Source of the DNA: Pseudanabaena sp. Chao 1811
Lineage (GTDB): Bacteria > Cyanobacteriota > Cyanobacteriia > Pseudanabaenales > Pseudanabaenaceae
Assembly (NCBI RefSeq): GCF_027942295.1
Contig: NZ_CP101416.1
Coordinates: 558,001 to 622,000 of the forward strand
DNA: 64,000 nucleotides
Direction: 5' to 3'
Shown here: one piece after another, positions 16,576 through 59,000 of the stretch
How positions within the stretch are numbered: position 1 is the first letter of the stretch
How the letters are laid out: each line of letters starts with the position of its first letter
The notes under the pieces: generated by a model
Database searches by the model: none
Told to the model about the DNA's origin: nothing
What the model saw: the letters and a program-made list of their open reading frames with translations, nothing else
Made by a program: the position numbers and the translations under genes

Positions 16576-16597
16576 ATGACTTTAAAGATTCAAGGTT

Positions 16598-16628
16598 AAT
16601 CACAATGGGGCAAAGCCCCATTGTGATT
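16598..16628 (+). repeat. Perfect palindrome between attenuator and rplJ
   Basis: 14-bp arms AATCACAATGGGGC and GCCCCATTGTGATT around an AAA loop, placed 12 bp upstream of the AAGGAGGT ribosome-binding site of rplJ. There is no T run, so it is more likely an mRNA-stabilising or repeat-family hairpin than a terminator. Confidence 0.7.
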
Positions 16629-16657
16629 AGCTCCAAACACAAGGAGGTGCAAAATAC

Positions 16658-17698: not shown

Positions 17699-17722
17699 TA
17701 AAGGCACGCATAGCGTGCCTTT
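17699..17722 (+). terminator. Terminator after rplL
   Basis: AAAGGCACGC and GCGTGCCTTT arms with a 3-4 nt loop, followed by TATTATTT. A second hairpin (ATTGTGAAG...CTTCACAAT, 17733-17760) follows directly. Confidence 0.75.
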
Positions 17723-17784
17723 ATTATTTAAGATTGTGAAGTGCGAAGTGCTTCACAATTATTTTGTATAAGTATTTTGATTTT

Positions 17785-18063: not shown

Positions 18064-18067
18064 ATTT

Positions 18068-18100
18068 GAGTAAAAAAACTACTAAGTAGTTTTTTTACTC
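18068..18100 (+). terminator. Terminator after hisE
   Basis: GAGTAAAAAAACTACT and AGTAGTTTTTTTACTC arms form a perfect hairpin with almost no loop, with a built-in T run on either strand. Confidence 0.8.
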
Positions 18101-18162
18101 AAGCGCTCGAAATACTTCTTAATGCAGTAAGATTACTCATGAGTTACAAAGGGTAGATTGCT

Positions 18163-20103: not shown

Positions 20104-20128
20104 AATAAGGGCGCTATGCGCCCTTATT
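20104..20128 (+). terminator. Terminator after the PBP gene
   Basis: Perfect 11-bp arms AATAAGGGCGC and GCGCCCTTATT around TAT, just after the stop codon. Confidence 0.75.
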
Positions 20129-30446: not shown

Positions 30447-30473
30447 TTAGGATGTCACTGCGTGACATCCTAA
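30447..30473 (+). terminator. Hairpin between the two SDR genes
   Basis: 12-bp perfect arms TTAGGATGTCAC and GTGACATCCTAA around TGC, with AAAA after it; 5 bp after the first stop codon. Confidence 0.7.
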
Positions 30474-31328: not shown

Positions 31329-31475
31329 CACGAGTTCAGGATAATTTGAAACGGGCTTTGAGAGAGGGTTTGCGTAGCAAACCCTCTCTCAAAGCCCGAA
31401 AGTAAAAGCCTTGCGTAGCAAGACTTTTACTTTTAGACTTTTAAAAATTTGCCAGCTTAAACCGAACTGACGTTA
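31328..31475 (+). repeat. Palindromic dispersed repeat, copy A
   Basis: About 148 bp. It contains two hairpins in a row: GGGCTTTGAGAGAGGGTTTGC/GCAAACCCTCTCTCAAAGCCC-type arms with GTA loop (31354-31398), and AAAGTAAAAG(C/T)CTTGC/GCAAGACTTTTACTTT (31400-31434). Its ends (CGAGTTCAGGATAATTTGAAACGGG and AAATTTGCCAGCTTAA, CGAACTGACG) recur in inverse orientation at 49149-49296. It may also terminate the upstream gene. Confidence 0.8.
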
Positions 31476-38423: not shown

Positions 38424-38430
38424 CAACACA

Positions 38431-38464
38431 AAGAAAAAGAGGCGCAATGCGCCTCTTTTTCTTT
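38431..38464. terminator. Terminator between petG and the convergent gene
   Basis: AAGAAAAAGAGGCGCA and TGCGCCTCTTTTTCTT arms, loop of one to two bases, positioned between convergent stops (38423 and 38463). Confidence 0.8.
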
Positions 38465-49990: not shown

Positions 49991-50029
49991 ATTGAGAGAG
50001 TGCGCCCCTAAGGGGCGCACTCTCTCAAT
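49991..50029 (+). terminator. Perfect palindrome after the GGDEF pseudogene
   Basis: 18-bp arms ATTGAGAGAGTGCGCCCC and GGGGCGCACTCTCTCAAT around TAA. Same style as other gene-end hairpins in the window. Confidence 0.7.
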
Positions 50030-50129
50030 GGATATACACTTGCTTCCTAATATTAAAAAGTGTAAATATTCAGGTTAAGATGTAAAGGTTTGTTACAAGT
50101 TTTAGCAGTCCTTCCATCGTTAGTGAGCC

Positions 50130-51821
50130 GTGTCAGCTTTATCTTCTGAACCCAATTATCGCTGGAGTCGTGACAACTACTCTGAACTCGCCCGCACCAT
50201 AGACATCTGGCGTACTGTTCTCACCTTTTCTTGGATGATCTGGCTCGATGGCAAAAAATGGAGCTATATCGGGGGCAAAACTGAATCCAAAGTCAAACAA
50301 CGCACTAGAAAACGGGCAATTTGGCTAAGGGAATCCATGCTACAACTGGGACCCACATTTATTAAAGTTGGGCAATTGCTTTCCACCCGTGCCGATATTT
50401 TGCCAACGGAGTCCGTTGAGGAATTATCTAAGTTACAGGACAAGGTTCCTGCATTTACTGCGGAAAAGGCGAAGCAAATTATTGAGGCAGATTTAGGCAA
50501 GTCCGTTGACCAAATGTTTGGTTACTTTGATCCTGTCCCCCTTGCCGCAGCAAGCCTAGGACAGGTGCATAAGGCACAACTGCATACGGGCGAAGAAATC
50601 GTGGTTAAGGTACAACGTCCGGGATTATTGAAATTATTTGCGATCGATTTAGGTATTCTCAAGAAAATTGCACAGTATTTTCAAAATCATCCCAAGTATG
50701 GACGGGGACGTGATTGGGTTGGTATTTATGAAGAATGCCGCAAAATCCTTTACGAGGAAGCAGATTATCTCAACGAAGGTCGTAATGCTGATACCTTTCG
50801 TCGTAATTTTCGAGGCGATCGCCGCATTATGGTTCCGCGAGTTTATTGGCGTTACGCATCACGACGAGTGCTGACTCTAGAATATATGCCGGGGATCAAG
50901 GTAAGTAACTATGAAGCTCTTGAAGCCGCAGGGATCGATCGCAAAATTATTGCTCGCATCGGTGCAGAGTCATATCTCGAACAATTGCTCAATCATGGCT
51001 TTTTCCATGCCGATCCCCATCCCGGAAACTTAGCAGTTACTGGCAAAGGTGAACTGATTTTCTATGATTTCGGAATGATGGGACAGATCCAAACCATCAC
51101 CCGTGATAAATTACTGCGCACTTTCTTTGGAATCGCCAAAAAAGATGCGGAGGCAGTGGTTAATTCCTTAATTGAATTAGGCGCTTTAGAAGTCAAAGGT
51201 GACATTGGACCAATTAGGCGATCGGTGCAGTATATGCTCGACAACTTCATGGGGCAACCTATGGATAAGCAATCGGTTGCAGCGATCAGTGATGATTTGT
51301 ACGATATTGCCTATGACCAACCATTTCGATTTCCCGCCACCTTTACCTTTGTCATGCGGGCACTCTCAACCCTTGAAGGTCTGGGCAAAGGACTTGATCC
51401 TAGTTTTAACTTTATGGAAGTCGCAAAACCCTACGCAACCAATCTTATGGAAAATGGCAGTAATAAGGAGTCAGGTAATTTATCTACCGCTTTTCTCGGT
51501 GAGCTGGGTAGACAAGCCGCTCAGGTAAGTAATACAGCGATCGCCTTACCACGTCGAATTGATGACACCCTCGCCAAACTCGAACGTGGTGATATTCGGG
51601 TCAGAATCAAATCCCAAGAAACTGATCGCCTATTACGTCGCCTCAGTAATGTCGGCATCGGCGCAATCTATGCCCTTTTAGGAGCAACTTGCCTATCATG
51701 TGCCACCCTTTTATTAGTTAATGGCTGGTTTGTTCCCGCGATCATGGCAACACTCTTTGCCATAGTTTTTGTATTAATCTTATTACGATTGTTATCGCGA
51801 ATTGATCGTCCTGAACGATGA
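50130..51821 (+). CDS. ABC1/AarF/UbiB-family atypical kinase
   Basis: 563 aa from a GTG start. Family marks: GPTFIKVGQLLSTRADILP (KxGQ motif, ~75), ELSKLQDKVPAF, LAAASLGQVHKAQL (Ala-rich loop replacing the Gly-rich loop), the Lys in IVVKVQRPGL, and HADPHPGNLAV plus the DFG in FYDFGMMGQ. Two C-terminal transmembrane helices (GAIYALLGATCLSCATLLLVNG and IMATLFAIVFVLILLRLL). Such proteins (plastid ABC1K, UbiB) regulate quinone or prenyl-lipid metabolism. Confidence 0.93.
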   Translation: MSALSSEPNYRWSRDNYSELARTIDIWRTVLTFSWMIWLDGKKWSYIGGKTESKVKQRTRKRAIWLRESMLQLGPTFIKVGQLLSTRADILPTESVEELSKLQDKVPAFTAEKAKQIIEADLGKSVDQMFGYFDPVPLAAASLGQVHKAQLHTGEEIVVKVQRPGLLKLFAIDLGILKKIAQYFQNHPKYGRGRDWVGIYEECRKILYEEADYLNEGRNADTFRRNFRGDRRIMVPRVYWRYASRRVLTLEYMPGIKVSNYEALEAAGIDRKIIARIGAESYLEQLLNHGFFHADPHPGNLAVTGKGELIFYDFGMMGQIQTITRDKLLRTFFGIAKKDAEAVVNSLIELGALEVKGDIGPIRRSVQYMLDNFMGQPMDKQSVAAISDDLYDIAYDQPFRFPATFTFVMRALSTLEGLGKGLDPSFNFMEVAKPYATNLMENGSNKESGNLSTAFLGELGRQAAQVSNTAIALPRRIDDTLAKLERGDIRVRIKSQETDRLLRRLSNVGIGAIYALLGATCLSCATLLLVNGWFVPAIMATLFAIVFVLILLRLLSRIDRPER

Positions 51822-51830
51822 TTTGCTTAC

Positions 51831-51885
51831 AAATCAAATTTAGTATTTGCAATGCTTAAAGCATTGCAAATACTAAATTTGATTT
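51831..51885. repeat. 27-bp perfect palindrome between kinase and phosphatase genes
   Basis: Arms begin AAATCAAATTTAGTATTTGC (51831-51857) and are repeated inverted (51859-51885), loop of one A. It is the longest uninterrupted stem in the window. It may terminate the kinase transcript, but strand and role are not certain. Confidence 0.8.
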
Positions 51886-51991
51886 TAATGATAGTTTATG
51901 AATATTACTGTAGTTTTTACCTGTGAAGGTTAAACTAAAGATTGCGGTAGCAGAACTGGTTAATTCAATACGTCGAGTCGAACCACCTAAC

Positions 51992-52729
51992 ATGAAGCGT
52001 CTATTTGCGGGAGCAACAGATACGGGCTGTGTCAGATCAGCCAATCAAGATTCTTACTATATCGATCCTGATGGACGATTTTTTGTAGTTGCTGATGGGA
52101 TGGGAGGACACGCAGGGGGCGAGATAGCAAGTAAGATTGCTGTCGATTCCATCCGTGAATGTTTAGACGCACTTTGGGATGTCGAAACAACACCTCAAAA
52201 GCTGATGCAGGATGCGATTGACAAGGCAAACCAAGCCATTATTAATGATCAAATGGCTAATCCTGTGCGCTCAGACATGGGAACAACCGTAGTCTTATTA
52301 CTATTTCGTGACGAACAGCCGTGGTTTTGCCACATTGGAGACTCACGACTATATCGTTTACGGGGAGCAAAATTAGAACAAATCAGTGATGACCATACAT
52401 GGATTGCCCGTGCGATTCAAACGGGGGTAGTCAATGCCGACGACGCGAAAAGCCATCCTTGGCGACATATGCTCCTACAATGCTTGGGGCGTGAAGACTT
52501 AAAATCAATTACAGCACAGGATATCGAGTGGCAACCTGGCGATCGCTTCTTGATCTGTAGTGATGGTTTAACTGAGGAACTAAGCGATGATCGCATCACT
52601 CACCAACTCAAGAATACTCGTAACTGCCAACAAGCTGCCGAAGCCTTAGTCGAAGCGGCAAAGTTACGTGGTGGTCGAGACAATATCACTGTAGTAATTG
52701 TATCTAACGAATTAAATCCAAATAGTTAG
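51992..52729 (+). CDS. PP2C-type serine/threonine phosphatase
   Basis: 245 aa from the ATG at 51992 (MKRLFAGATDTGCVRSANQDSYY); a GTG 23 codons upstream is possible. PP2C motifs: NQDSYYIDPDGRFFVVADGMGGHAGGEIAS (metal-binding Asp pairs), MGTTVVLLLF, HIGDSRLYRLRGAKL, DRFLICSDGLTEELSDD and RGGRDNITVVIV. A soluble Stp1/PphA-like phosphatase that would oppose Ser/Thr kinases. Confidence 0.93.
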   Translation: MKRLFAGATDTGCVRSANQDSYYIDPDGRFFVVADGMGGHAGGEIASKIAVDSIRECLDALWDVETTPQKLMQDAIDKANQAIINDQMANPVRSDMGTTVVLLLFRDEQPWFCHIGDSRLYRLRGAKLEQISDDHTWIARAIQTGVVNADDAKSHPWRHMLLQCLGREDLKSITAQDIEWQPGDRFLICSDGLTEELSDDRITHQLKNTRNCQQAAEALVEAAKLRGGRDNITVVIVSNELNPNS

Positions 52730-52732
52730 TTA

Positions 52733-52815
52733 CAGCGCTTGGCGCTGACATGAAAACCAGAGAAATTTTTGAAAGCACTGCTTCGCAGTGCTTTCAAAAA
52801 TTTCTCTGGGCTACT
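52733..52815 (-). repeat. Two-hairpin repeat element, copy 1
   Basis: The left part has TTACAGCGCTTGGCGCTGACATG, a small stem; the main stem CCAGAGAAATTTTTGAAAGC (52757-52809 overall) has 25-bp arms around TTC. In its own orientation the parts match other copies at 53560, 54278, 55393 and 55507. Confidence 0.8.
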
Positions 52816-52823
52816 TTATAAGC

Positions 52824-52868
52824 CTCAAAAGGGAGTTGCGACGCGAAGCGTCGCAACTCCCTTTTGAG
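52824..52868. repeat. Perfect palindrome upstream of the HExxH gene
   Basis: 21-bp arms starting CTCAAAAGGGAGTTGCGACG around GAA. It follows the repeat element directly; no start or stop lies near. Possibly another repeat family member. Confidence 0.7.
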
Positions 52869-52974
52869 CTTTAGTTCTGCCCTAATAGTTAATTAATAGT
52901 TGAGATTGTCTGTCTAGGTAGAGCCAACTAACAACCTCTATCTATACTAGAAGCGTAAAGCTCAGTAATTCCTA

Positions 52975-53559
52975 ATGAATAGCATTCGGAGAATCAGCTT
53001 TTTAATTTTGTTGACCCTAGCATTAGTAACCGCAATTGGGGTGTCAGATCTCAGCTTTTTTGCGAATTCGGAGGCAAAATCTAGCCTAGCGGAGGAAGCT
53101 TGGGGACAGGCGGGATCGATCGCCTATCAAGCGGCGGCAAGAACGATGCGCTCTAAAAATGGTGAAGGCAGACCTCTCGATAATGTCCAGAAACGCTATC
53201 TAAGGCGATATTTCATCGATTATATTGACCGTGTCACCGTGATTTACGATGCTCAAATGATGGATCGCTGGATCTTGGGCAATGTCGCTGTCCATTTTGG
53301 GAAAGTAGAGACGATCGCCCAAACCTATTGCGATCGCATCTATCTTCGCGATCCATACAAATCTGAAGATCCCAAACAGTTGGCAGTACTAGCTCATGAA
53401 ATGGTGCATGTACGCCAATGCGCCCAAAATGGAGGATTAGATCAGTTTGGCTATCAATATTTTGTGGAATATAAACGCGCCAAACAAAAGTACGAAAATA
53501 ATCTCATGGAGCGAGAAGCCTACGATTTACAAAATCGCTTTGCCAAAACCAACCAATAA
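52975..53559 (+). CDS. Exported HExxH putative metallopeptidase
   Basis: 194 aa. An N-terminal signal peptide or anchor (ISFLILLTLALVTAIGV) and a zincin-like motif LAVLAHEMVHVRQCAQ (HExxH, ~141-145) with a candidate third ligand Glu in NLMEREAYDLQNRF. The domain resembles DUF4157-type peptidase-like proteins. Substrate unknown; whether it is active depends on the third ligand. Confidence 0.75.
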   Translation: MNSIRRISFLILLTLALVTAIGVSDLSFFANSEAKSSLAEEAWGQAGSIAYQAAARTMRSKNGEGRPLDNVQKRYLRRYFIDYIDRVTVIYDAQMMDRWILGNVAVHFGKVETIAQTYCDRIYLRDPYKSEDPKQLAVLAHEMVHVRQCAQNGGLDQFGYQYFVEYKRAKQKYENNLMEREAYDLQNRFAKTNQ

Positions 53560-53633
53560 AGATTTTTGAAAGCGCGGCGAAACAGCGCTTTCAAAAATCT
53601 CTCTGTGTTTCAAGTCGGTGTAAAGCGCTGTAA
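53560..53633 (+). repeat. Two-hairpin repeat element, copy 2
   Basis: Main stem AGATTTTTGAAAGCGC and GCGCTTTCAAAAATCT (53560-53600), then GTGTTTCAAGTCGG and TAAAGCGCTGTAA. The main stem overlaps the stop of the HExxH gene and may end its transcript. Confidence 0.75.
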
Positions 53634-53671
53634 CGTTAAAATTAGTAACGTTACATTATGTCTTCGCTGTT

Positions 53672-54268
53672 TTGTATACTCGACCTCTCGCTAATCTCAT
53701 CGAACAATTGCAGCGTCTCCCCGGAGTAGGTGCAAAAACTGCTCAACGCTTATCCCTTCACATCATCAAGCGTCCCACCGAAGAGATCGAAGCCCTTGCC
53801 CAAGCATTAATTCAAGCCAAGCAACAAGTGGGCAGTTGCACCGTATGTGGTCATTTATCGGCGGAACCCATCTGCGAGATTTGCGCCCATCCTAGTCGCG
53901 ATAATTCGATTATTTGCGTAGTCGCTGACTCTCGTGACCTCATTGCCCTAGAAAAAACTCGCGAATATCGCGGCAAATATCATGTGCTCGGTGGTCTCAT
54001 TTCACCAATGGATGGCATTAGCCCCGATCAATTAAATATTCAAAGCCTCGTCCGTCGCGTCAGTGGTAATAAAGTTACTGAGGTAATTATGGCGATCGCC
54101 CCCAGTGTCGAAGGAGAAACTACCACACTCTATGTGGGCGGATTATTAAAACCCTTTACAAAAGTTACGCGGATTGCCTTTGGTATTCCTATGGGTGGTG
54201 ATTTAGAATATGCAGATGAGGTAACACTCGCCAAAGCGATCGAGGGCAGACGCGAATTAGATTTTTAG
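53672..54268 (+). CDS. recR: Recombination protein RecR
   Basis: 198 aa. Helix-hairpin-helix [21 protein letters not shown] at the start, zinc finger [16 protein letters not shown] (~57-72), then the TOPRIM domain ([20 protein letters not shown]). It acts with RecF/RecO loading RecA at gaps. No ATG lies in frame near the conserved start; a TTG at 53672 is used, giving [13 protein letters not shown]. Confidence 0.95.
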
Positions 54269-54277
54269 TTTGTTACA

Positions 54278-54352
54278 GCACTTTGCGCTCAAGTCCAAAC
54301 CAAAATTTTTTTAAAAGTGTTGCAAAGCAATACTTTTAAAAATTTCTTTTGA
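54278..54352 (-). repeat. Two-hairpin repeat element, copy 3
   Basis: TTACAGCACTTTGCGCTCAAG with CCAAACC, then main stem AAAATTTTTTTAAAAGTGTTGC (arms with one to two imperfections) around AAAG. Located 10 bp after recR. Confidence 0.7.
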
Positions 54353-54491
54353 TTCAGCCGTATAAAGACCGTCTCAAAGAGACAGTCTCTTAACAAAATC
54401 TTGTTGCATATTGTTCCATCATGCAGATAATATTTTGCTGGTTCGCAACACAAAAATGATGATGATTAACCCTTTCCCTAGAGGGAGTTCC

Positions 54492-55010
54492 ATGACAGCT
54501 TTATCTGGGTTAATTGGTTCTGGGTGCATGATCTTTGGTTTGCCATGCTTGCCCCCAATCATTGCCAGTCCATCTACAAGAGAGCCACAGGCAATCTTGG
54601 TACTAGGCGGTTCTCCCAGCCGTGAAAAATTTGCTGCTCAATTTGCACTACAACATCCACAATTACCCATCTTTGTTTCATCAGGCAGTCCAGAGGAATA
54701 TGCCAAATATGTATTTGATCGTGCAGGGGTAGATCGAAGTCGCATCCATTTAGACTATCGGGCTGTAGATACCGTTTCTAACTTTACAATCATGGTTAAA
54801 GAGCTTCAGAAACGTAATATTACAGATGTCTATGTGATTACATCAGATTTTCATATGCCCCGTGCGCTGGTAATTGGCAAAATTGTGTTGGGGAGTCGCG
54901 GTATTGAGATGTATCCCGTTACTATTCCGTCAACCATCAAGTCTGAAAGTCCAACTAAATCTTTGCGTGACGGATTGCGATCAGTATTTTGGCTAGTTAC
55001 AGGTTCATAG
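54492..55010 (+). CDS. YdcF/DUF218-family protein
   Basis: 172 aa from the ATG at 54492, which follows AGGGAG; frames open to a TTG at 54411. N-terminal hydrophobic stretch (LIGSGCMIFGLPCLPPIIAS). DUF218 core: QAILVLGGSPSREKFAAQ, PIFVSSGSPEEYAKYVFDRAGVDRSRIHLDYRAVDTVSNF and VYVITSDFHMPRALVIGKIVL. The family (YdcF, SanA) is linked to envelope integrity; biochemical role unknown. Confidence 0.87.
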   Translation: MTALSGLIGSGCMIFGLPCLPPIIASPSTREPQAILVLGGSPSREKFAAQFALQHPQLPIFVSSGSPEEYAKYVFDRAGVDRSRIHLDYRAVDTVSNFTIMVKELQKRNITDVYVITSDFHMPRALVIGKIVLGSRGIEMYPVTIPSTIKSESPTKSLRDGLRSVFWLVTGS

Positions 55011-55049
55011 ATAAGGATGGGCGGCGCTTCGCGCCACCCATCCTTATCT
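55009..55049. terminator. Hairpin after the YdcF-like gene
   Basis: AGATAAGGATGGG and CCCATCCTTATCT arms with inner GGCGC/GCGCC stem around TTC; overlaps the stop codon. Confidence 0.7.
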
Positions 55050-55161
55050 ACCTGAACTTGTTGTTTAGGGGCAAGAACTAAATTTTGAAAAAATTTTGAA
55101 AAACTATTGCTTGAAAATCCTAAATAGTGTTATCTTAATCAAGCGCTAAAAAAAGCGCCCA

Positions 55162-55234
55162 GCCGGGATAGCTCAGTTGGTAGAGCAGTGGACTGAAAAT
55201 CCACGTGTCACGAGTTCAAATCTCGTTCCTGGCA
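55162..55234 (+). tRNA. tRNA-Phe (GAA)
   Basis: 73-nt cloverleaf. Acceptor GCCGGGA pairs with TCCTGGC, discriminator A. The anticodon arm GTGGA-CTGAAAA-TCCAC gives GAA. T arm ACGAG-TTCAAAT-CTCGT. CCA not encoded. A terminator hairpin follows. Confidence 0.97.
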
Positions 55235-55240
55235 TCATTA

Positions 55241-55266
55241 AAAAGAGTTCGCTTAGCGGGCTCTTT
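55241..55266 (+). terminator. Terminator after tRNA-Phe
   Basis: AAAGAGTTCGC and GCGGGCTCTTT arms with a short loop, then a T run. Confidence 0.75.
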
Positions 55267-55298
55267 TTTGTTTTGGACTAGTTAGTTCGACAAAAGTG

Positions 55299-55335
55299 CA
55301 AAATGGTAAGAATTGCAAAGCGATTCTTACCATTT
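55299..55335. repeat. Palindrome resembling the one at 31497
   Basis: AAAATGGTAAGAAT and ATTCTTACCATTTT arms around TGCAAAGCG. The arm sequence is shared with the hairpin at 31497-31541 (AGTAAGAAG / CTTCTTACCATTTTTCG). Confidence 0.65.
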
Positions 55336-55392
55336 TCCGCCATTTGCACCATGCTTTGCAGGGCATACAGCAATTTTCGATCAAACGAACCA

Positions 55393-55474
55393 CAAGATAT
55401 TTTTTGAAAGGCTTGCAAAGCAAGCCTTTCAAAAAATATCTTGGTTTGGTTTTGAGCGCAAAGCGCTGTAAATG
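55393..55474 (+). repeat. Two-hairpin repeat element, copy 4
   Basis: Main stem CAAGATATTTTTTGAAAGGC (24-bp perfect arms) around AAA, then GGTTTTGAGCGCAAAGCGCT and GTAA. Best-preserved copy. Confidence 0.85.
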
Positions 55475-55506
55475 GTGATACAGCCTATTTAGGGTTTGTA
55501 GTAGTA

Positions 55507-55585
55507 CAGATAAATTTTGAAAAAGCTTGCTTCGCAAGCTTTTTCAAAATTTATCTGGGTTTTGAGAAAGCGCAAAGCGCTGTAT
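55507..55585 (+). repeat. Two-hairpin repeat element, copy 5
   Basis: Main stem CAGATAAATTTTGAAAAAGC (24-bp perfect arms) around TTC, then GGTTTTGAGAAAGCGCAAAG and CGCTGTA. Confidence 0.85.
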
Positions 55586-55684
55586 CTAACTCACGTTTGA
55601 TTAAGTGAAGTATAGTCACACTTCACTTAATTGGTATAAGATGCCAAAAGCGAAGTCATCACGTAATTGATTGGAGATATAGCC

Positions 55685-56209
55685 TTGAAAGGAATTTTGA
55701 TTAGCTTTGGCATTATGGCAGTTGCTGTATTGGTCATTGTGTTTGCCCAAATTACGGGTGCACAGACCGCAGTTGCTAGCGTGTCTACAGGTGTACCCTC
55801 TACAGGCGTACCAAATCAAACAGAAGTAAAAATAGCAGAAGCACCTTTAATTAATATGAGTGATTCCGAAATCAAAGAAACTGGCACTGGGCTTAAATAT
55901 AAAGTAATCACTGCTGGTACAGGTGCAACACCTAAGAAGGGCGATACCGTCGTTGTACATTACACAGGTACTCTCGAAGATGGAACTAAGTTCGATAGTT
56001 CTCGCGATCGCAATAGTCCTTTTTCCTTCAAGCTTGGCGTTGGTCAGGTAATTAAAGGATGGGATGAAGGCTTGGCAGATATGCGTGTTGGCGATCGCCG
56101 TACCTTGATTATTCCTCCAGACCTAGGCTATGGCGCTCGTGGAGCAGGTGGAGTCATTCCTCCTAATGCCACCTTAATTTTTGATGTAGAACTATTACGT
56201 ATTTCGTAA
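55685..56209 (+). CDS. FKBP-type peptidyl-prolyl isomerase
   Basis: 174 aa from the TTG at 55685, eight bases after GGAG. An N-terminal membrane anchor or signal ([20 protein letters not shown]), a Ser/Thr-rich linker, then an FKBP domain: [63 protein letters not shown] and [23 protein letters not shown] periplasmic or lumenal fold helper. Followed by a terminator. Confidence 0.92.
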
Positions 56210-56239
56210 ATTGCAGTATGGCTGACATAAGCCTATGCC

Positions 56240-56266
56240 AAGAAGCGATGCAATGCGTCGCTTCTT
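56240..56266 (+). terminator. Terminator after the FKBP gene
   Basis: AAGAAGCGA and TCGCTTCTT arms with inner GC pairs around AAT, then TTTGTTTT. It lies inside the upstream extension of the next reading frame, showing that the extension is not translated. Confidence 0.75.
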
Positions 56267-56333
56267 TTGTTTTGTAGATTCGAGGAAATCTTGTAATATT
56301 CAGTGGCAGCAGTTTTCAGAAAGGCTTAATCCT

Positions 56334-59000
56334 ATGCGTAAGGGTTTTGGTATTGCGGTTTTGTTGATGGTGACTGGCTTACCTATGCAAATGCTCAACT
56401 GTGTGGAAGTACAGGCACAAGCTGAGACAGAGACAAATCCTAAAGCTGAAGCAGATCGACTGCTAGAGCAGGGTAATCAGCTAAATCGAGTGAGCAAGTT
56501 TCGTGAGGCATTACCCATTTTTGAGCGATCGCTGCAAATTTATCGAGAAATTAAAAATCGAAAAGGGGAAAGTAATGCCCTCAATAATATTGGTAATGCC
56601 TACAGTTCTCTAGGCAAGTATCAAAAATCTATTGAATATCATCAGCAATCCTTAGCCATTGCTCAAGAAATTGGCGATCGCAATAATCAGGGTAATTCCC
56701 TCGCTAATTTAGGGGTCGCGTATTATTTATTGGGTCAGTACACCAAAGCCATCGAATATCATGAGCAAGCTTTGGCAATTAAAAAACAAACTGGCGATCG
56801 CTATGGGGAAGGTCGCTCGTTAGGCAACCTCGGCAATGCCTACAATCTGCTCGGACAATATCCTAAGGCAATTGATTATTATCAAAAATGTTTGCCCATC
56901 TTAAAGCAAATTGGCGATCGCGATGGTGAGTCAGATTTGTATATTGCCCTTGGCATTGCCTACGATGGTCTTGGTAAGTATCAAACAGCAATTGAGCAAT
57001 ATCAAAAAGCCCTTGTCATCAAAAAGCAAATTAATGATCGCAATGGTGAAGCCGATGCCTTAAATACCCTTGGTGGGGCATACGACTCGCTGGGGCAGTA
57101 CCAGAAAGCCATTGATTATTACCAGCAATCCTTAACGATCAAAAAGCAAGTTGGCGCTCGTAGTGGTGAGGCTGATACTTTAAATAATTTGGGAATTGTC
57201 CATAACAGTCTTCGGCAATATCCCAAAGCGATCGGCTATTTCCAGCAAGCCCTAGTGATTGCCCGTGAAGTTGGTAATCGCTATACGGAGGGACGGACAT
57301 TAAACAATCTCGGAATTTCCTATCGCGCCCTCGGTGATAGCCAGAGAGCCGTTGCCTACTACCAGCAAAGTCTGGAAATTGCTAAACAAATTGGCGATCG
57401 CGATGGCATCAGAACTGCCCTCAGCAGTTTAGGCACTGCCTACAATGCACTGGGGCAAGTTGATCAAGCCTTTGACTATCATCAACAAGCATTAGCTACG
57501 GCTATTCAAATGGGCAATCGCGCTGGCGAAGGAAGCGCCCTGAGTCAGCTTGGATATTTATTCTCCCAACAGGGACAACCTGAGTTAGCAATTCTGTTTT
57601 ATAAGCGATCAATAAATGTGCGTGAAGCAATTCGCAAAGATATCCGTGGTTTGAGTAAGGAAGATCAAAAGTCTTACTTATCTACTATTGAGAGTTCCTA
57701 TCGCCGTCTTGCTGACCTTTTACTGAAACAGGGTCGCGTTATGGAAGCTTTGCAGGTTATTGACTTACTCAAGGTGCAAGAACTGGAAGACTATCTCAAA
57801 AATATTAAGGGAACCGATAGAACATTACGGGGAATTCAACTATTAGACGTGGAGCAGGCTTTTATTCGTGATGTTTCCACAGTTAAGTTTGCCCAAATCG
57901 CTGAACTCAATCGCCAACTTGCTAGTCAAATCCAACAAATACCCCAAGCTGAAATCAACAAAGTTCCTGATTACCTCAAACAGATTCCTCAGAGAACTGT
58001 TCTCTTCTATCCACTAATTCTCGATGATCGGTTAGAGCTAATTCTCTTCTCTCAAAACCAGCCGCCGATTAGCCGTACTGTCAATATTAAACAGGATGAT
58101 TTGAAAACCTTAATCGAAAATTTCAAATCTAGTTTATTAGATACAGGTTCTGAAGATTTTAAAGAACCAGCGATCCAACTCTATCAGCTCTTAATTAAGC
58201 CAATTGAGACAGAACTCAAGCAGGCAAATACGGAGACAATTCTCTATGCTCCTGATGGTCTATTGCGATATATTCCCCTCTCGGCTCTATATGAAGCAAA
58301 ACCTAGCGATGGCAAGCATTGGTTAATTGAGAAATATCGCATTAGCAATCTGATTGCCTATAGCCTGAGCGACTTTACATCCAAAGCCAAAATGCAGCCG
58401 AGTATTCTCGCTGGAGCCTTTGGTGGCAAGGGTAACGAGAAGAAGTTTGGACAAGCGGGATTGCCAGCCACGATTCAAGAAGTACAGGCGATTGCGAATT
58501 CTTTTCAAAATTCCATCACGCTCAAAGAAGAACAGTTCAGTCGTAAAGAATTTGAATCACGACTTAAAAACCATAATATTTTGCATTTAGCGACCCATGC
58601 GGAGTTTAATACTGGTACACCTGACACCTCATTTATCATTTTTGGGAATGGCGACAAAATTCGATTAAATGAAATTAGCGATTGGGATATCCCCAATGTG
58701 GATCTGATCATTCTCAGTGCTTGTCAGACAGGGATCGGGGCATTGGGGGAAGGGGTCGAAATTTTGGGATTTGGCTATCAAGTACAAAAGGCAGGCGCAA
58801 AATCTGCGATCGCATCTCTGTGGAAGGTTGATGATACGGGGACACAGTTACTTATGGATGCTTTTTATAAGGAGTTACAAAAGGGTAATATTCCCATTGC
58901 GGAGGCATTAAGGCGATCGCAAATTTCTCTGATTAAGTCTTCAAATTACAATCATCCCTATTTTTGGTCAGCATTTTTTGCGATCGGCAATGGGTTGTAA
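56334..59000 (+). CDS. TPR-CHAT protease-like protein 1
   Basis: 888 aa from the ATG at 56334; an open frame 33 codons upstream spans a terminator and lacks a signal peptide. Signal peptide GFGIAVLLMVTGLPMQMLNC. About ten tetratricopeptide repeats of the NLGNAYxxLGQYxKAIxYxQQxL type (residues ~45-440), then a helical linker (SIINVREAIRKDIRGLSKED) and a CHAT caspase-like domain (from ~620): His in ILHLATHAEFNTG and Cys in LIILSACQTGIGALGEGVEI, the dyad expected for activity. Paired with a close paralogue downstream by 25 bp. Confidence 0.92.
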   Translation: MRKGFGIAVLLMVTGLPMQMLNCVEVQAQAETETNPKAEADRLLEQGNQLNRVSKFREALPIFERSLQIYREIKNRKGESNALNNIGNAYSSLGKYQKSIEYHQQSLAIAQEIGDRNNQGNSLANLGVAYYLLGQYTKAIEYHEQALAIKKQTGDRYGEGRSLGNLGNAYNLLGQYPKAIDYYQKCLPILKQIGDRDGESDLYIALGIAYDGLGKYQTAIEQYQKALVIKKQINDRNGEADALNTLGGAYDSLGQYQKAIDYYQQSLTIKKQVGARSGEADTLNNLGIVHNSLRQYPKAIGYFQQALVIAREVGNRYTEGRTLNNLGISYRALGDSQRAVAYYQQSLEIAKQIGDRDGIRTALSSLGTAYNALGQVDQAFDYHQQALATAIQMGNRAGEGSALSQLGYLFSQQGQPELAILFYKRSINVREAIRKDIRGLSKEDQKSYLSTIESSYRRLADLLLKQGRVMEALQVIDLLKVQELEDYLKNIKGTDRTLRGIQLLDVEQAFIRDVSTVKFAQIAELNRQLASQIQQIPQAEINKVPDYLKQIPQRTVLFYPLILDDRLELILFSQNQPPISRTVNIKQDDLKTLIENFKSSLLDTGSEDFKEPAIQLYQLLIKPIETELKQANTETILYAPDGLLRYIPLSALYEAKPSDGKHWLIEKYRISNLIAYSLSDFTSKAKMQPSILAGAFGGKGNEKKFGQAGLPATIQEVQAIANSFQNSITLKEEQFSRKEFESRLKNHNILHLATHAEFNTGTPDTSFIIFGNGDKIRLNEISDWDIPNVDLIILSACQTGIGALGEGVEILGFGYQVQKAGAKSAIASLWKVDDTGTQLLMDAFYKELQKGNIPIAEALRRSQISLIKSSNYNHPYFWSAFFAIGNGL

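What the first reader, a model, noticed from the sequence alone, without database searches (positions are those of the whole stretch)
52733..55585. Five copies of a two-hairpin repeat in 2.9 kb
Copies at 52733, 53560, 54278, 55393 and 55507 share: a long AT-rich stem (AGAT..TTTTGAAAG and its complement) with loops AAA or TTC, next to a small stem AGCGCAAAGCGCT followed by GTAA. Each sits in a gene gap, in either orientation. Stem arms differ between copies but stay complementary. This is more than a terminator: the flanking small stem and the GGTTTTGAGCGCAAAGC motif are fixed. I do not recognise it as a named family.
Basis: seen in the sequence. Interest (0 to 1): 0.65.

Follow-up and report, generated by a model that had tools for sequence, protein, structure and literature searches.

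The report
IS630-type mini-transposon with self-copying hairpin
The five repeats are copies of a roughly 100-letter passenger transposon that spreads through Pseudanabaena genomes at TA sites, most likely moved by IS630-type transposases, and the long hairpin inside it stays perfect because its two arms are copied from one another.

Summary
The five copies belong to a family matched at 95 places in this 4.73-Mb genome and in all 25 other genomes of its genus (taken as Pseudanabaena), but not in 9 genomes of other genera of the family.

Empty orthologous sites show a TA duplication for copy 4 and for another genomic copy. Left ends match terminal repeats of two IS630-family transposons; one (1,032 bp) has at least 18 identical copies here. 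It is therefore a MITE, very close in kind to pneumococcal RUP. No tie to a REP-associated tyrosine transposase was found.

Complementary arm changes do not need an RNA function. In 31 orthologous pairs the arms change together (105 between-genome differences, 39 within-copy mismatches), and the 3-nt loop is exactly reverse-complemented in 14. Ordinary hairpins in the window do this too (7 of 21). DNA template switching explains this.

Unexplained: the shared right end resembles IS-A little beyond TACAGC, and no complete IS-B was found in this genome.

The parts
52731..52831 (-). Copy 1. Right end (TA)CAGCGC at 52731, small stem 52734-52746, long stem 52757-52809; left end degenerate (boundary approximate) and run into by hairpin 52824-52868
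   Evidence: Orthologous copy with a full left end in G021, absent in G020.
53551..53632 (+). Copy 2. Decayed: imperfect loop, left end lost; right end ...AAAGCGCTGTA at 53632
   Evidence: Present in both G020 and G021.
54274..54356 (-). Copy 3. Right end (TA)CAGCAC at 54274, long stem 54308-54342, left end degenerate
   Evidence: Absent in G020 and G021, which have a different short hairpin there.
55366..55470 (+). Copy 4, full length, subfamily B: TA-CAGCAATTTTCG...GCGCTG-TA, long stem 55393-55443
   Evidence: Empty site GGGCG-TA-AATGGTGA in G021.
55479..55584 (+). Copy 5, full length, subfamily A: TA-CAGCCTATTTAGG...GCGCTG-TA, long stem 55507-55557
   Evidence: Absent in G021; the target TA is not preserved there.
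52824..52868 (.). Separate 21-bp hairpin (GAA loop) abutting the left end of copy 1; not part of the family

Best explanation
The repeats are a non-autonomous IS630-type miniature inverted-repeat transposable element. It is about 101-102 bp, (TA)CAGC...GCTG(TA), almost a foldback: two arms around a 3-nt loop. SHOWN: dispersal, defined ends, TA target duplication at empty sites, and IS630 transposons in the same genome and genus with matching left terminal repeats. INFERRED: an IS630 transposase supplied in trans cuts at the ends and pastes the element into TA sites, and intergenic copies survive because they do least harm. The central palindrome is kept perfect by template switching in DNA replication: one arm is copied from the other, which spreads a change to both arms and sometimes inverts the loop. 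SHOWN: arms change together and loops are reverse-complemented between orthologous copies. INFERRED: the molecular mechanism. Any effect on neighbouring transcripts (weak terminator, RNase site) would be secondary.
For: 95 places in G000. Of 39 full-length copies, 34 have TA before CAGC and 37 have TA at the right end (the right TA lies inside the model that selected them, the left TA does not). Empty sites in G021: L019a..AAT-TA-ACTT.., and copy 4. IS-A (L150, 1,032 bp): of 21 IS630 loci examined in G000, 18 hold a letter-identical copy running from TACAGC to CTGTA (found by its own ends); its two frames match NCBIfam IS630, one above and one below the cut-off. Left-end identity of representative copies: A 25/30 to IS-A, B 27/31 to IS-B. 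Left-end edit distance to the nearer IS is 4-11 in 39 copies (28 nearer A, 11 nearer B), against a mode of 14 in 684 other TACAG 30-mers, 30 of which are at 9 or less (some may be decayed copies). Intergenic in 49 of 51 family copies examined, while 80% of random positions in the same loci fall in ORFs (less one false hit found; crude ORF caller). Arms: between genomes 105, within copy 39; loops flip 14, same 7, other 10 of 31 pairs. Loop classes are balanced with their complements: GAA 19/TTC 19 and AAA 17/TTT 16 in G000. One-sided pair changes are rare: 7 cells against 113 two-sided in the long stem (my sums).
Against: The right end shared by both subfamilies matches IS-A hardly better than background beyond TACAGC (edit distance 11-15 of 30 in A copies) and IS-B only moderately (7-12 in B copies). 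No complete IS-B was found in G000 (one 41-bp match), yet copy 4 (subfamily B) is absent from the G021 site. The target TA of copy 5 is not intact in G021. The G020 copy of L019a has TG instead of TA at its left. An ectopic exchange between copies could also change both arms at once (possible case L274/L301, 7+7 changes). A small control of 5 non-family hairpin pairs showed no flip. Transposition and template switching were not observed, only inferred from sequence.
Confidence: 0.9

Rival explanations
1. A structured RNA element (terminator, attenuator or RNase site) kept by selection on base pairing; the arms show compensatory evolution.
For: Strong covariation. Terminator-like pattern hits at several of these stems. 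Folding z about -9 to -11 for three copies folded as DNA. Many copies sit close to gene ends.
Against: Two-sided changes almost without G-U or one-sided intermediates. Exact loop inversions in orthologs. Non-family hairpins flip too. Insertion at TA and absence at orthologous sites. No long T tract after the stem. G-T against A-C mismatches in MITE orientation 70:56 over three genomes, a weak test because insertions lie in both orientations.
Confidence: 0.07
2. A REP/REPIN-type element moved by a REP-associated tyrosine (Y1) transposase.
For: Short intergenic palindromes; a GTAA at one end recalls GTAG tags. Cyanobacterial GTAG families are described (PMC3733652, passages read).
Against: Paired ends CAGC/GCTG with TA duplication; only 3 Y1_Tnp matches in the genome, none with a convincing end motif in the fetched locus; the base after GTA varies; about 100 bp rather than 20-40.
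Confidence: 0.02
3. The arms are homogenised by recombination between copies (gene conversion) rather than by template switching within one copy. This concerns the hairpin only and leaves the MITE reading untouched.
For: Some orthologs differ at many paired positions at once (L274/L301; window copy 1 against G021), as if replaced whole.
Against: Pairs with identical arms and a flipped rare loop (L264/L310 TCA-TGA; L349/L447 TAA-TTA). Non-family hairpins show flips with unchanged arms.
Confidence: 0.2

Closest known systems
RUP, repeat unit of pneumococcus, with IS630-Spn1
   Same: 107 bp, 108 intergenic copies, short terminal repeats resembling an IS630 transposon, insertion at TA (PMC2229807 and PMC3049150, passages read).
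   Different: Other sequence expected (other phylum; no RUP sequence was compared). Here a near-perfect central palindrome with a 3-nt loop, two left-end types matching two IS630 lineages, and a shared right end.
Nezha MITE of cyanobacteria (linked to ISNpu3-like elements)
   Same: Cyanobacterial MITE with a proposed helper IS (mentioned in passages of PMC3049150, and PMC3733652, and in the reference list of PMC10969869; original paper not read).
   Different: Its sequence could not be compared here.
ISY100 (Synechocystis, IS630/Tc1-mariner)
   Same: TA target and TA duplication; transposase alone suffices; 24-bp terminal repeats (PMC2170065, abstract and passages).
   Different: An autonomous element; here only the passenger, with a weakly matching right end.
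Template-switch mutation of inverted repeats (arm homogenisation, spacer inversion)
   Same: Same two signatures (PMC8604942, passages; PMC8794818, abstract and start of introduction).
   Different: Described there in yeast coding DNA and in RNA genes; here frequent in a dispersed bacterial family and in ordinary hairpins.

Membership tests
MITE of the IS630 group | Short, non-coding, many dispersed copies with fixed ends | tested here: met
   95 places; 39 full-length of 93 sequences extracted in G000, at least one of the 93 being a false hit.
MITE of the IS630 group | TA target, TA duplicated | tested here: met
   Empty site for L019a and copy 4 in G021; TA left 34/39, right 37/39.
MITE of the IS630 group | Terminal repeats match a resident IS630 element | tested here: inconclusive
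   Left end met (A 25/30 to IS-A, B 27/31 to IS-B); right end weak (A 15/30 to IS-A, B 21/31 to IS-B); no complete IS-B found in G000.
MITE of the IS630 group | Mobilised by that transposase | not testable with these tools
   Needs a transposition assay.
RUP (S. pneumoniae) | RUP sequence itself | not tested
   No RUP sequence was fetched; the claim is 'works like', not 'is'.
REP/REPIN with RAYT | Adjacent Y1 transposase gene | tested here: not met
   3 Y1_Tnp loci in G000; one end-motif match with 2 mismatches and no hairpin in the 3.3-3.4 kb held for each.
REP/REPIN with RAYT | Invariant GTAG/GTGG-type tag at the hairpin foot (definition partly recalled) | tested here: not met
   Right end is GTA followed by A 21, T 12, C 4, G 2 of 39.
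Rfam families | Score above gathering cut-off | tested here: not met
   Only the tRNA reaches it in 50000-58000.
Intrinsic terminator | GC-rich stem followed by a T run | tested here: inconclusive
   18 pattern hits against 2.9 expected in 52600-55700, several at these stems, but with broken T tails.

The most novel reading that the evidence does not exclude
The family is a modular chassis: one right half and palindrome refitted with left ends of at least two IS630 lineages, so that it can change its helper transposase. Meanwhile its palindrome evolves by template switching so often that loop orientation looks at equilibrium in the three genomes examined, making these copies a natural counter of hairpin-inversion events in bacteria.
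Probability: 0.3. Interest if true: 0.55.

Novelty: new member of a known kind. Interest (0 to 1): 0.4.

Why it matters
It explains the dispersed repeat around these genes and gives it a probable helper. It also shows, with orthologs and ordinary hairpins as a control, that perfectly covarying stems in bacterial intergenic DNA can be produced by DNA copying, so covariation alone should not be read as evidence of a functional RNA. The many copies would allow hairpin-inversion rates to be measured.

Tried and rejected
REP/RAYT and Rfam RNA (apart from the tRNA all matches below gathering) were rejected. The pattern AGCGCAAAGCGCTNGTAA gave 0 hits because I wrote one base too many. Family beyond the genus: G049's matches whose sequence I looked at (7 of its loci) are an unrelated palindrome family; G051's best match (L086) looks like a true distant relative. 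A first control on non-family hairpins gave only 5 pairs with no flips (3 same, 2 other). The larger control on the window (28 three-base-loop hairpins, family ones left out) gave 26 comparisons at 18 hairpins: 7 flips, 7 same, 7 other and 5 without a hairpin in the relative; 5 of the 7 'other' have wholly different stems. No IS630 locus held carries the MITE right-end motif with up to 2 mismatches (0 of 50; several loci are cut at contig ends). The model alignment A2 holds 28 rows that I picked because they show the hairpin; loci with the end motif but no clear hairpin (L001, L010, L012, L023, L027, L029) and L003, which has one, were left out. Of the 93 G000 sequences used, one (window 31384-31453, score 15) is another hairpin family; other weak ones may be among them. 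Papers: no hit for Pseudanabaena with 'miniature inverted-repeat', none for inverted repeat + spacer inversion + cyanobacteri; the listings showed, by title and start of abstract, nothing on this family. Only open-licence papers are held, so this is not proof of absence.

Full report
WHAT WAS CHECKED. The region holds five copies in orientations -, +, -, +, +, between the genes for a PP2C phosphatase, a metalloprotease-like protein, RecR, a DUF218 protein, tRNA-Phe and an FKBP isomerase (the metalloprotease label rests on weak matches). Its RecR is 90-97% identical to that of the records named Pseudanabaena, so I take it as Pseudanabaena; that is an inference.

A GENOME-WIDE FAMILY. GCGCAAAGCGCTGTAA with up to two mismatches hits 103 times against 3 for the reversed control. 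A covariance model from 28 hand-picked copies gives 150 rows in the genome, which merge to 95 places; only 150 candidates were scored, so more may exist, while the weakest rows may be other hairpins. In relatives, 28 of the 58 genomes searched have matches at E <= 0.001: the genome itself, all 25 others of the genus (66-69 matches each, about the number scored), 0 of 9 from other genera of the family, and 2 of 23 more distant genomes (stricter filters). Of those two, G049's loci that I read are an unrelated palindrome; G051's L086 shares the left-end and right-end motifs.

ANATOMY. Full-length copies read (TA)CAGC-[left end about 25 nt]-[long palindrome with 3-nt loop]-[GGTTT.. spacer]-AGCGCAAAGCGCTG(TA). 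Of 93 sequences extracted in G000, 39 are full length and 21 match the model only from position 16 on to the right end, that is, lack the left end (one of the 93 is a false hit). The left end has two forms: A, TACAGCCTATTGAGG...GTAGTACAG, and B, TACAGCAATTTTCGATCAAACGAACC. Copy 5 is A and copy 4 is B.

INSERTION. TA precedes CAGC in 34 of 39 full-length copies and forms the right end in 37 of 39. At G000:3992808 the filled site is ..CTAT-TA-[CAGCC..GCTG]-TA-ACTTGAG, the G021 site is ..CAAT-TA-ACTTTAG, and G020 is filled, with TG for the left TA. At the window's tRNA-Phe/FKBP gap, G021 has GGGCG-TA-AATGGTGATCTCGGACTCACG where G000 has two elements. This gives a clean TA duplication for copy 4; for copy 5 the target TA is not preserved in G021. 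Copy 3 is absent from both relatives, copy 1 is shared with G021 only, and copy 2 is shared with both. So the cluster was probably built by successive insertions. At that gap G020 carries another member at a different position.

HELPER. PF13358 transposases occur in 25 of 25 genus genomes searched, G000 included. Of 30 such loci examined, 6 have TA-bounded terminal repeats beginning TACAGC (L136, L142, L147, L150, L160, L163); other loci had other repeats or were cut by contig ends. IS-A (L150): of the 21 IS630 loci examined in G000, 18 hold a copy identical over 1,032 nt, one (L470) has the same terminal repeats at the same spacing but was not compared letter by letter, and two are of another type. 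IS-A's two open frames match NCBIfam IS630, the second above the cut-off, the first below it. Form A's left end matches IS-A at 25/30, the A-like elements L147 and L163 at 21-24, and the other types listed at 18 or less; form B's matches IS-B at 27/31, its relatives at 25-26, and other types at 20 or less (best eight listed). The right end is the weak point: 15/30 against IS-A for A copies and 21/31 against IS-B for B copies. No complete IS-B was found in G000, but G007, G012 and G020 have it.

THE HAIRPIN. In 28 copies the long stem shows 113 two-sided cells against 30.5 in shuffles, and only 7 one-sided cells (my sums). I paired orthologous copies by both 280-nt flanks among G000, G020 and G021: 31 pairs (12, 12, 7; some loci appear more than once; pairs without both flanks aligned in register were dropped). 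Between genomes the arms differ by 105 edits; within copies the two arms mismatch by only 39. Independent change from a perfect ancestor predicts equality. The loop is identical in 7 pairs, exactly reverse-complemented in 14, otherwise different in 10. In L264/L310 and L349/L447 the arms are identical and only the loop is inverted. Among the G000 copies GAA and TTC, and AAA and TTT, are near equal. Other hairpins in the window behave likewise: 7 flips, 7 same, 7 other of 21 comparisons, with 5 more lacking a hairpin in the relative. A smaller set of 5 had no flip. These are the signatures of template switching, arm homogenisation and spacer inversion (PMC8604942, passages; PMC8794818, abstract). 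I conclude that covariation here does not by itself show an RNA function.

WHERE IT SITS. Of 52 sequences examined (one of them the false hit), 50 lie between ORFs, one (copy 4) overlaps a short ORF on a crude call, and one could not be classed; 80% of random positions in the same loci fall inside ORFs. Convergent, tandem and divergent gaps are used 14, 27 and 9 times, against 14, 38 and 13 among all gaps over 40 nt in the same loci without the window, so no clear preference.

COMPARISON. RUP of S. pneumoniae (107 bp, 108 copies, TA, IS630-Spn1) is the same kind of thing (PMC2229807 and PMC3049150, passages). ISY100 shows that a cyanobacterial IS630 element inserts at TA with duplication (PMC2170065, abstract and passages). 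Nezha could not be compared. This family is therefore a new member of a known kind, with an unusual chimeric build and a well documented concerted palindrome.

VERDICT. MITE of the IS630 type, confidence 0.9; template switching as the cause of arm complementarity, about 0.75; helper identity of IS-A for form A, about 0.7; of IS-B for form B, about 0.6.

Noticed in passing
window 31352-31433; L014:1600-1690: A second dispersed family in the genus: two adjacent hairpins with GCGTAGC/GCTATGC-type centres, about 120 bp, many matches across relatives; the window example is assigned by eye.
   Followed up: no
L087, L358, L359, L361, L363, L364, L366 (genome G049): In another cyanobacterial family, many near-identical palindromes around TTGGTATTTTTGAAAGCTTTGC-loop-(complement) with varied loops; unrelated ends.
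   Followed up: no
window 16597-16629, 18066-18102, 49991-50029: At orthologous positions in G021 or G020 the whole hairpin is replaced by a different perfect hairpin, suggesting that hairpins in these gaps themselves turn over.
   Followed up: partly
window 17699-17723, 20104-20128, 30447-30473, 38430-38464: Ordinary hairpins whose 3-nt loop is exactly inverted in G021 while the arms compared are unchanged.
   Followed up: partly
L086 (genome G051, other family): A probable distant member of the family: TTACAGCAATTTTC...AAGCGCAAGGCGCTGTAA around a different palindrome.
   Followed up: no
window 51831-51885: A 26-bp perfect stem with loop TAA just after the ORF ending at 51821; the G020 ortholog has loop TTA.
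   Followed up: no
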